A stretch of 64,000 nucleotides of DNA from Chryseobacterium sp. VAUSW3 (lineage in GTDB: Bacteria > Bacteroidota > Bacteroidia > Flavobacteriales > Weeksellaceae). The notes under the pieces were generated by a model, which saw nothing but the letters and a program-made list of their open reading frames with translations, made no database searches and was not told where the DNA came from. Location: the NCBI RefSeq assembly GCF_002205795.1, contig NZ_NIUY01000004.1, forward strand, positions 1-64,000, in the 5' to 3' direction. This document shows, in pieces, positions 27,410-29,242 of the stretch (its first letter is position 1; every line of letters begins with the position of its first letter). Position numbers and translations under genes: made by a program.

Positions 27410-28198
27410 ATGCAAACAGAAAAAATAATAGATAAAATCGTTTCGTGGCTAAAAGATTACGCCACGAAAGCAGGCGTGAAAGGTTACGTCATCGGAGTTT
27501 CGGGTGGAGTAGATTCTGGAGTGGTCTCTACACTTTGCGCAATGACGGGACTCAATTTGCTGATGCTCGAAATGCCGATTCGCCAGAATGAAGATCAGGT
27601 GAATCGAGCTTGGGAACACATGAACGACATCACCAAAAGATTTCCAAACGCAAAAGCGATGAGCGTGAATTTGACTCCCGCTTTTGAGGAATTATACAAA
27701 ACTTTCGATGTAAAAGATGACGAATTTCCTTCCGAAAAACTCGCATTTGCCAATACAAGAAGTCGTTTGCGAATGTTGACGCTTTATTATTACGGACAAA
27801 TCAATTCACTTTTAGTTTGCGGAACCGGTAATAAAGTTGAGGATTTTGGGATTGGTTTTTACACCAAATATGGCGACGGTGGAGTAGATGTTTCGCCGAT
27901 TGCCGATCTTTATAAAACCGAGGTTTACGCACTGGCGAAATCGCTGAATCTGGTAGAATCCATTCAGAACGCAATTCCAACCGACGGACTTTGGGATGTG
28001 GAAAGAACTGATGAGCAGCAGATTGGCGCAACTTATCCGGAGTTGGAAAAAATTCAGAAAGAATGGGGAACAAAAACAGAAGCGGATTACTCGGGAAGAG
28101 ATTTGGAAGTGTATAAAATTTTCAGCAGAATGAATAAAGCTGCACAGCACAAAATGCAGCCAATCCCGGTTTGCGATATTCCAGAAGAATGGAGATAA
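27410..28198 (+). CDS. nadE: NAD+ synthase, ammonia-dependent
   Basis: The 262-residue protein catalyses the final step of NAD synthesis, amidating deamido-NAD with ATP. The PP-loop SGGVDSG is at residues 31-37, and ANTRSRLRMLTLYYYGQ, GTGNKVEDFGIGFYTKYGDGGVDVSPIADLYKTEVY and PTDGLW are diagnostic. No glutaminase domain is present, so it uses free ammonia or a separate donor. It lies two genes from gldB. Confidence 0.95.
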   Translation: MQTEKIIDKIVSWLKDYATKAGVKGYVIGVSGGVDSGVVSTLCAMTGLNLLMLEMPIRQNEDQVNRAWEHMNDITKRFPNAKAMSVNLTPAFEELYKTFDVKDDEFPSEKLAFANTRSRLRMLTLYYYGQINSLLVCGTGNKVEDFGIGFYTKYGDGGVDVSPIADLYKTEVYALAKSLNLVESIQNAIPTDGLWDVERTDEQQIGATYPELEKIQKEWGTKTEADYSGRDLEVYKIFSRMNKAAQHKMQPIPVCDIPEEWR

Positions 28199-28201
28199 AA
28201 A

Positions 28202-28216
28202 AGCCAGGTAAAAAGT
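28202..28216. repeat. Direct repeat, left copy flanking the barnase gene
   Basis: AGCCAGGTAAAAAGT is found here and identically at 28833-28847. The two copies bracket the barnase-like gene. Nearby 28222-28232 holds a variant (GAGCCAAGGGA), which suggests a low-complexity intergenic repeat family rather than a transposon footprint. Confidence 0.5.
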
Positions 28217-28296: not shown

Positions 28297-28824
28297 ATGA
28301 ACAGACAGAACTTTAAGCTTGTCTTATTTTTTATCATCGGAATGCTGAGCGCGTTTTTGGTAATGTATCTTTTCGAGAATTATAAAATCGAAAAAAAACC
28401 ACAGCCTGAAAACCAGGAAAACGTTGTTGTGAAACAGCAAACCAGAAACGAAAGTTTTAATGATAATCAGGAAAGAAATTCTTCAACTCAATCTGGAGAC
28501 ATTGATAATCTTACCGAAGAAAACCTCGTCATTGATTATGTGAAAGCCAACAGAAAACTCCCGGATTATTACATAACCAAAGGTGAAGCCCGAAGCCAGG
28601 GCTGGGTAGCATCAAAGGGAAATTTATGCGATGTTTTGCCTGGTCGTGCGATTGGTGGCGATAAATTCAGCAACCGTGAAAAGACTTTACCGACAGGAGC
28701 GCAATATTTTGAGGCCGATGTAAATTACAACTGCGGACGCAGAAATGCCGACCGAATTGTCTTCACCAAAAACGGTGATGTCTGGTTGACTCACGATCAT
28801 TACAAAAGCTTCCAAAAACAATAG
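28297..28824 (+). CDS. Barnase-like ribonuclease with N-terminal membrane anchor
   Basis: Residues 72-175 align with Bacillus amyloliquefaciens barnase almost end to end (KLPDYYITKGEAR, GWVASKGNL, GRAIGGDKFSNRE, EADVNYNCGRRNADRIV, THDHYKSF). All catalytic positions are kept: Lys87, Glu139 (general base), Arg149 and Arg153, and His168 (general acid). It should cleave RNA after guanine. Before the domain lies one hydrophobic segment (residues 8-26) without a clear cleavage site, then a polar linker, so the enzyme is anchored on or released beyond the inner membrane. A barstar-like gene follows 71 bases later. No T9SS domain is present. The assignment to barnase is secure; the cellular target is inference. 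Confidence 0.93.
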   Translation: MNRQNFKLVLFFIIGMLSAFLVMYLFENYKIEKKPQPENQENVVVKQQTRNESFNDNQERNSSTQSGDIDNLTEENLVIDYVKANRKLPDYYITKGEARSQGWVASKGNLCDVLPGRAIGGDKFSNREKTLPTGAQYFEADVNYNCGRRNADRIVFTKNGDVWLTHDHYKSFQKQ

Positions 28825-28832
28825 TAGTGAAG

Positions 28833-28847
28833 AGCCAGGTAAAAAGT
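28833..28847. repeat. Direct repeat, right copy flanking the barnase gene
   Basis: This is an exact copy of AGCCAGGTAAAAAGT at 28202-28216. It lies between the barnase-like and barstar-like genes. Confidence 0.5.
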
Positions 28848-28895
28848 TTAGTATAAATCAATAACCAATAACTAACAACTGACAAACCAACAACT

Positions 28896-29195
28896 ATGAA
28901 CACTGTATTTATCGATTTTACAGACATCGGCGATTACGATGATTTTTATGCGCAACTGAAAGAAAAACTGACGCTTCCGGAGTTTTTCGGAGATAATTTA
29001 GACGCGCTTTACGATTCGCTGACCGGCTTTGTGGAGCTTCCGCTTCATATCGAATTTGTAAATATGAGTGTTGACCAGCTCGAAATTTTCGAAGATTTGC
29101 TTGTAACGCTTGAAGATGCAGAAGATGAGTTTGATGATTTTACATTCGCGTATTATCTGGAGCAGTACGAAGATGAAGAAGATGCTGAAGAGTAA
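28896..29195 (+). CDS. Barstar-like ribonuclease inhibitor
   Basis: The 99-residue acidic cytoplasmic protein matches barstar. LPEFFGDNLDALYDSLTGFVELPL corresponds to the barnase-binding helix; the key acidic residues Asp36 and Asp40 line up with barstar Asp35 and Asp39, and the LTGxVExP turn is conserved. It should bind and block the active site of the barnase-like enzyme encoded just upstream, protecting the producing cell. The C-terminal tail is an unusually acidic run of Asp and Glu not found in classical barstar. A terminator follows directly, so the two genes form one unit. Confidence 0.92.
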   Translation: MNTVFIDFTDIGDYDDFYAQLKEKLTLPEFFGDNLDALYDSLTGFVELPLHIEFVNMSVDQLEIFEDLLVTLEDAEDEFDDFTFAYYLEQYEDEEDAEE

Positions 29196-29217: not shown

Positions 29218-29242
29218 AAAACCACCGAATTTCGGTGGTTTT
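29218..29242. terminator. Bidirectional terminator after the barstar gene
   Basis: AAAACCACCGAA (29218-29229) and TTCGGTGGTTTT (29231-29242) are exact inverted copies, giving a stem with A-run on one side and T-run on the other. It sits between convergent genes (barstar and the lipoprotein) and can serve both. Confidence 0.8.

What the first reader, a model, noticed from the sequence alone, without database searches (positions are those of the whole stretch)
28297..29195. Membrane-anchored barnase-type RNase with its own barstar
The sequence shows a full barnase domain with every catalytic position kept (Lys87, Glu139, Arg149, Arg153, His168), preceded by one hydrophobic segment and a 45-residue polar linker, and followed directly by a barstar-like gene with the two key Asp (36, 40) and an added acidic tail. 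Barnase/barstar is an established toxin-inhibitor pair. The inference is that this is an exported or surface-held RNase used against neighbours or for nucleic acid use, with barstar guarding the cytoplasm. How an RNase crosses the envelope here, and why the anchor is retained, is not known.
Basis: partly seen in the sequence, partly recalled or inferred. Interest (0 to 1): 0.72.

Follow-up and report, generated by a model that had tools for sequence, protein, structure and literature searches.

The report
Membrane-tethered barnase with cytoplasmic barstar
This bacterium carries an ordinary RNA-cutting enzyme (barnase) fixed to its membrane, with its matching inhibitor gene (barstar) next to it; the pair is an old, stable gene pair of one bacterial family rather than a newly acquired weapon, and what it does for the cell is untested.

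Summary
ORF 28297-28824 encodes an N-terminal transmembrane helix, a disordered linker and a complete barnase domain (1bne E=2.6e-33; model-to-crystal rmsd 1.4 A). ORF 28896-29195 encodes a barstar. One correction: the catalytic lysine is K95 (barnase K27). K87 aligns with barnase K19 and is not conserved.

The pair is a core element of one family. Barnase is found in 112 of 149 family genomes, including all 21 of the window's genus; 111 of the 112 also have barstar, and 105 have it adjacent downstream. It sits in a conserved nadE/gldB/gldC neighbourhood, with no phage hits. Anchor, RNase domain and barstar are under purifying selection; the linker drifts. Two cysteines, in 82 of 83 homologs, sit exactly where a disulfide was engineered into Bacillus barnase (A43C/S80C), which fits an extracytoplasmic RNase domain.

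Best reading: an RNase tethered to the periplasmic face of the inner membrane, with barstar guarding the cytoplasm. The role is inferred (a resident envelope RNase); use against neighbours is not supported. Simple barnase-barstar pairs are already described (Zhang et al. 2012). New here: the constrained tether, native cysteine pair and family-wide synteny. New variant of a known kind.

The parts
28297..28824 (+). Membrane-anchored barnase-type RNase, 175 aa
28318..28374 (+). Single transmembrane segment, residues about 8-26, read as an uncleaved N-in signal anchor
   Evidence: Hydropathy maximum above 1.9 in all 83 homologs; N-flank net charge above C-flank in 67 of 83, below in 2; dN/dS 0.03-0.33 where dS is finite; AF2 helix 3-32
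28393..28494 (+). Disordered polar linker, residues 33-66
   Evidence: pLDDT below 50; linker dN/dS 0.36-2.1 where dS is finite; rich in S, N, E, K, T
28504..28821 (+). Barnase catalytic domain (residues 70-175); K95, R127, E139, R149, R153, H168
   Evidence: PF00545; phmmer alignment; conservation; Foldseek
28627..28629 (+). Cys111 codon, equivalent to barnase position 43
   Evidence: same site as the engineered A43C in 1BNE
28732..28734 (+). Cys146 codon, equivalent to barnase position 80
   Evidence: same site as the engineered S80C in 1BNE
28896..29195 (+). Barstar-family inhibitor, 99 aa, no signal peptide (cytoplasmic)
   Evidence: PF01337 67 bits; PDB hits; model and fold search
27410..28198 (+). 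nadE (NAD+ synthase), conserved upstream neighbour; possibly same transcript
29218..29242 (.). Terminator-like symmetrical hairpin after barstar, shared with the convergent downstream gene
   Evidence: reported on the minus strand; the inverted repeat reads much the same on the plus strand

Best explanation
The first gene makes a guanyl-type RNase of the barnase family held by one uncleaved N-terminal helix in the inner membrane (N-terminus inside), so that the RNase domain hangs in the periplasm on a flexible leash of about 40 residues and is locked by a Cys111-Cys146 disulfide. The second gene makes cytoplasmic barstar, which plugs the active site of any chain that folds before it is translocated. 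Shown: both families, an intact active site, an intact inhibitor contact face, the retained and constrained anchor, the invariant cysteine pair, co-occurrence of the two genes, and family-wide synteny. Inferred: topology, disulfide formation, RNase activity, inhibition, and the role, which I take to be a resident housekeeping RNase that degrades RNA reaching the periplasm (salvage, or clearance of entering RNA), not a weapon.
For: Families and fold. K95, E139, R149, R153 and H168 kept in 83 of 83 distinct homologs. Hydrophobic N-terminal segment in every homolog examined, including distant genera. Positive-inside bias: N flank mean net +2.0, C flank +0.5; 67 of 83 N greater than C, 2 of 83 the reverse; few have an AxA-like motif at the end of the helix (11 of 83). 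dN/dS where dS is finite: anchor 0.03-0.33, RNase domain 0.04-0.09, barstar about 0.05, linker 0.36-2.1. Cys pair in 82 of 83, and the one exception lacks both; the pair coincides with 1BNE 'A43C/S80C disulfide mutant'. Barnase in 112 of 149 family genomes, 21 of 21 of the genus; 111 of those 112 also have barstar; same-strand adjacency in 105. Conserved order gldC, gldB, nadE, barnase, barstar.
Against: No direct evidence for RNase activity, localisation or role. The own genome gives no hit to DsbB, and only sub-threshold hits to VKOR (in an ATP-synthase cluster) and to a DsbA-like family, so what would form the disulfide is unknown. The positive-charge count alone does not separate the two flanks (2.3 against 2.8); only the net charge does. 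In one genome (L129) barnase stands beside a barstar remnant, in three genomes the two genes are unlinked (L120-L122), and one genus carries a second, lipoprotein barnase without its own barstar (L047-L049, L054); barstar adjacency is therefore not absolute.
Confidence: 0.6

Rival explanations
1. Antibacterial toxin: the RNase is shed or presented on the cell surface and kills neighbours, and barstar is the immunity protein.
For: Barnase domains with barstar immunity are a known polymorphic-toxin module, and the toxin-then-immunity gene order fits (PMC3482391). Some relatives carry a lipoprotein version (L047).
Against: No delivery or repeat domain, fixed chromosomal position beside nadE, strong purifying selection with no diversification, found in most of the family, absent from phages and Bacteroidota plasmids. 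An inner-membrane anchor gives no route into a neighbour.
Confidence: 0.13
2. Self-directed toxin-antitoxin or anti-phage system: barstar is titrated or degraded on infection or stress and barnase then cuts the cell's own RNA.
For: A tight RNase plus labile-inhibitor pair could work this way; adjacent genes on one strand.
Against: The RNase carries an export anchor and a conserved Cys pair, both pointless for a cytoplasmic effector. No PADLOC model matches the RNase domain and no PHROG matches the RNase; the barstar matches one PHROG of unknown function at E=7e-11. Stable, non-mobile, family-core distribution.
Confidence: 0.1
3. The helix is an ordinary signal peptide removed by signal peptidase, and the RNase is released as a soluble periplasmic or extracellular enzyme as in Bacillus.
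For: Bacillus barnase and binase are secreted this way (established knowledge); 11 of 83 homologs show an AxA-like motif near the end of the helix.
Against: No conserved cleavage motif, and the segment is constrained (dN/dS down to 0.03) whereas the linker just after it drifts. The model gives a continuous helix 3-32.
Confidence: 0.12

Closest known systems
Barnase/barstar of Bacillus amyloliquefaciens (PF00545/PF01337; PDB 1BRS, 1BNE)
   Same: Same folds, complete catalytic set, same inhibitor contact residues (D35, D39 and T42 equivalents; E76 is Asp, Y29/W38/W44 are Phe/Tyr/Phe), cytoplasmic inhibitor of an exported RNase.
   Different: Bacillus barnase is a soluble secreted protein with a cleaved signal and no cysteines (established knowledge). 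Here it has a retained anchor, a linker, and a native cysteine pair at the site engineered in 1BNE; the genes are adjacent in a nadE/gld neighbourhood.
Simple barnase-barstar gene pairs described with polymorphic toxins (Zhang et al. 2012, PMC3482391)
   Same: Toxin-then-inhibitor gene order, single domain, no polymorphism; Bacteroidetes are named in the Tox-Barnase and Imm-Barstar rows.
   Different: That paper does not mention a membrane-anchored form in the text searched; here it is family-core and syntenic.
Archaemetzincin (peptidase M54, PF07998)
   Same: Relatives carry an M54 lipoprotein with the HExxHxxGxxHC...C...CxxC motif between barnase and barstar.
   Different: Absent from the window's genome, so not part of this locus; patchy in relatives.
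YhcO-type orphan barstars (PDB 2CX6, 5F4C)
   Same: Same fold as the window barstar.
   Different: The E. coli control genome has a barstar but no barnase hit, whereas the window barstar is paired.

Membership tests
Barnase (PF00545, N1/T1-type guanyl RNase) | Profile score above the curated cut-off | tested here: met
   53.3 bits against 24
Barnase (PF00545, N1/T1-type guanyl RNase) | Catalytic Glu73, Arg83, Arg87, His102 and Lys27 | tested here: met
   E139, R149, R153, H168 and K95 aligned and kept in 83 of 83
Barnase (PF00545, N1/T1-type guanyl RNase) | Barnase fold | tested here: met
   Model against 1bne_A: TMt 0.90, rmsd 1.4 A
Barnase (PF00545, N1/T1-type guanyl RNase) | Guanyl-preferring RNase activity | not testable with these tools
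   Needs an enzyme assay
Barstar (PF01337) | Profile score above cut-off and barstar fold | tested here: met
   67.2 bits against 23.4; Foldseek 2za4_D, 5f4c_A
Barstar (PF01337) | Asp35 and Asp39 on the inhibitory helix | tested here: met
   D36 and D40 align; D40 invariant, D36 at least 90% in 26 sequences
Barstar (PF01337) | Binds and inhibits the paired RNase | not testable with these tools
Polymorphic toxin system | Secretion or delivery N-terminal domains and variable C-terminal toxin | tested here: not met
   Only an anchor and a linker; domain conserved across the family
Known anti-phage defence system (PADLOC) | Match to a defence model | tested here: not met
   Only a 12.7-bit match over the anchor and linker

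The most novel reading that the evidence does not exclude
A family-wide inner-membrane-tethered periplasmic RNase, natively disulfide-locked, is a constitutive envelope enzyme of Weeksellaceae (for example to destroy RNA entering or leaking through the envelope), and in many relatives the co-inserted M54 lipoprotein protease trims its leash to release it.
Probability: 0.12. Interest if true: 0.6.

Novelty: new variant of a known kind. Interest (0 to 1): 0.33.

Why it matters
Barnase is one of the best-studied proteins, yet its natural role outside Bacillus is little examined. A conserved tethered form in a Gram-negative family makes a clear test possible: does a resident periplasmic RNase have a housekeeping role? 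It also suggests that nature uses a disulfide at the position protein engineers chose for barnase (A43C/S80C).

Tried and rejected
PF00545 as a genome-survey query missed genomes, including the window's own, and gave false 'orphan barstars'; replaced by re-scanning loci and alignment A2. VKOR hit in the own genome lies in an ATP-synthase-like cluster and was rejected as spurious. The Rfam scan and tRNA scan of the window were empty. The idea that the pair is mobile was tested with the plasmid and phage collections and not supported. The repeat AGAGCCAGGTAAAAAG after nadE and after barnase has only three copies in the genome and led nowhere. Paper searches for Chryseobacterium or Gram-negative periplasmic barnase found nothing on point.

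Full report
What is there. The window is from a Kaistella/Chryseobacterium-like flavobacterium (nearest loci L004-L006; own genome 2.63 Mb in 10 contigs). ORF 28297-28824 (+) is a 175-aa protein: a short basic N-terminus, one hydrophobic segment (about residues 8-26), a polar linker, and a barnase domain (PF00545, 53 bits; 1bne E=2.6e-33). ORF 28896-29195 (+) is a 99-aa barstar (PF01337, 67 bits; 1b3s E=4.9e-11). AlphaFold models give a helix 3-32, disorder at 33-66 and a confident domain that superposes on barnase at 1.4 A, and a barstar fold.

Active site. In the phmmer alignment window residue n corresponds to barnase n-68 up to the short gap after residue 132, and n-66 beyond it. K95, R127, E139, R149, R153 and H168 therefore correspond to barnase K27, R59, E73, R83, R87 and H102. 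In 83 distinct homologs K95, E139, R149, R153 and H168 never change; R127 is R in 82 and K in 1. (In the divergent genus g17, read later, a few copies have Arg at the K95 position.) The barstar keeps D36 and D40 (barstar D35, D39), T43 (T42) and an acidic D74 where barstar has E76 (read). Whether it binds was not testable.

Anchor and topology. Every homolog examined has a hydrophobic N-terminal segment. Net charge is higher on the N flank in 67 of 83 and lower in 2, although counts of positive residues alone do not separate the flanks. Few sequences have an AxA-like motif near the end of the helix (11 of 83). Codon comparison with eight close relatives gives dN/dS of 0.03-0.33 for the anchor, 0.04-0.09 for the domain and about 0.05 for barstar, but 0.36 to above 1 for the linker, in comparisons where dS is not saturated. 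The anchor is thus selected, not a decaying signal peptide, and the linker behaves as a passive leash.

Cysteines. C111 and C146 are present together in 82 of 83 homologs, and the one exception (a Tissierellia lipoprotein version, L046) has neither. They align with positions 43 and 80 of barnase. The best sequence match in the PDB is 1BNE, whose title is 'Barnase A43C/S80C disulfide mutant'. A conserved pair at a site already shown to accept a disulfide is good evidence for an oxidising, extracytoplasmic location. Against this, DsbB was not found in the genome, and VKOR and a DsbA-like family gave only sub-threshold hits, so how the bond would form is open.

Distribution. The first survey with PF00545 was insensitive and missed the window's own genome. 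With alignment A2, barnase is in 112 of 149 genomes of the family and 21 of 21 of the genus. Barstar is in 117. Both occur in 111; barnase alone in one (G097, where the barstar appears to be only a remnant); barstar alone in six, four of them weak or different barstars. In 105 of the 112, barnase lies directly upstream of barstar on the same strand within about 1.1 kb; in three an efflux operon of 5-7 kb separates them; in three they are unlinked (L120-L122). Outside the family the gene is rare: 3 of the Bacteroidota genomes sampled outside it. No phage record matches and the only plasmid-collection hits are in Proteus, Acetoanaerobium and Aerococcus.

Neighbourhood. gldC and gldB (reverse), then often a GNAT gene, then nadE, barnase, barstar are in the same order in most loci. 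Such a fixed chromosomal position with strong purifying selection does not look like a competition weapon or a mobile toxin-antitoxin unit.

A third gene in relatives. In 27 of the 112 genomes a lipoprotein of the archaemetzincin family (M54, PF07998) lies between barnase and barstar, sometimes with a GIY-YIG gene. On a barnase+barstar tree the state needs 16 changes, at least 8 of them forced by well-supported branches, and one locus (L078) holds only the last 17 codons of the M54 gene. An old insertion with repeated loss is the simplest account. The window's genome has no M54 hit at all, so the protease is not needed for the pair.

Mechanism. Shown by sequence: an intact RNase, an intact inhibitor, a retained anchor, a cysteine pair, linkage and constraint. 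Inferred: the RNase is inserted in the inner membrane by the Sec/SRP route, works in the periplasm on a leash, and barstar guards the cytoplasm against chains that fold before export. The physiological substrate is unknown; I favour a resident RNA-degrading role.

Compared with what is known. It is a member of the barnase and barstar families. Simple barnase-barstar pairs were described as widespread and without polymorphism (PMC3482391). The additions here are the constrained tether, the native cysteine pair and the family-wide synteny. I rate it a new variant of a known kind, of modest interest.

Noticed in passing
L007:6515-7135, L026:6461-7078 and other relatives (27 of 112 barnase-bearing family genomes): A lipoprotein of the archaemetzincin (M54) family lies between barnase and barstar in many relatives; patchy, with a decayed copy in L078.
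   Followed up: partly
L047:1321-1797, L048:1336-1797, L049:1321-1797, L054:1321-1797: One genus carries a second barnase with a lipobox (FTGC) instead of a plain anchor and no barstar beside it; a single barstar elsewhere presumably serves both.
   Followed up: partly
L129:837-1361: Intact barnase beside what looks like a barstar reduced to a C-terminal remnant (draft genome, could be an assembly error).
   Followed up: partly
L095, L096, L097: A TolC/HlyD/ABC-2 efflux operon of 5-7 kb sits between barnase and barstar in three related genomes.
   Followed up: no
28200-28215 and 28831-28846: A 16-nt direct repeat (AGAGCCAGGTAAAAAG) follows the stop codons of nadE and of barnase; only three copies in the whole genome.
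   Followed up: partly
L041: A contig titled Streptomyces sp. ISL-12 carries a Chryseobacterium-type gldB-nadE-barnase-barstar block like that of L039 (Chryseobacterium sp. ISL-6): probably contamination of the record.
   Followed up: no
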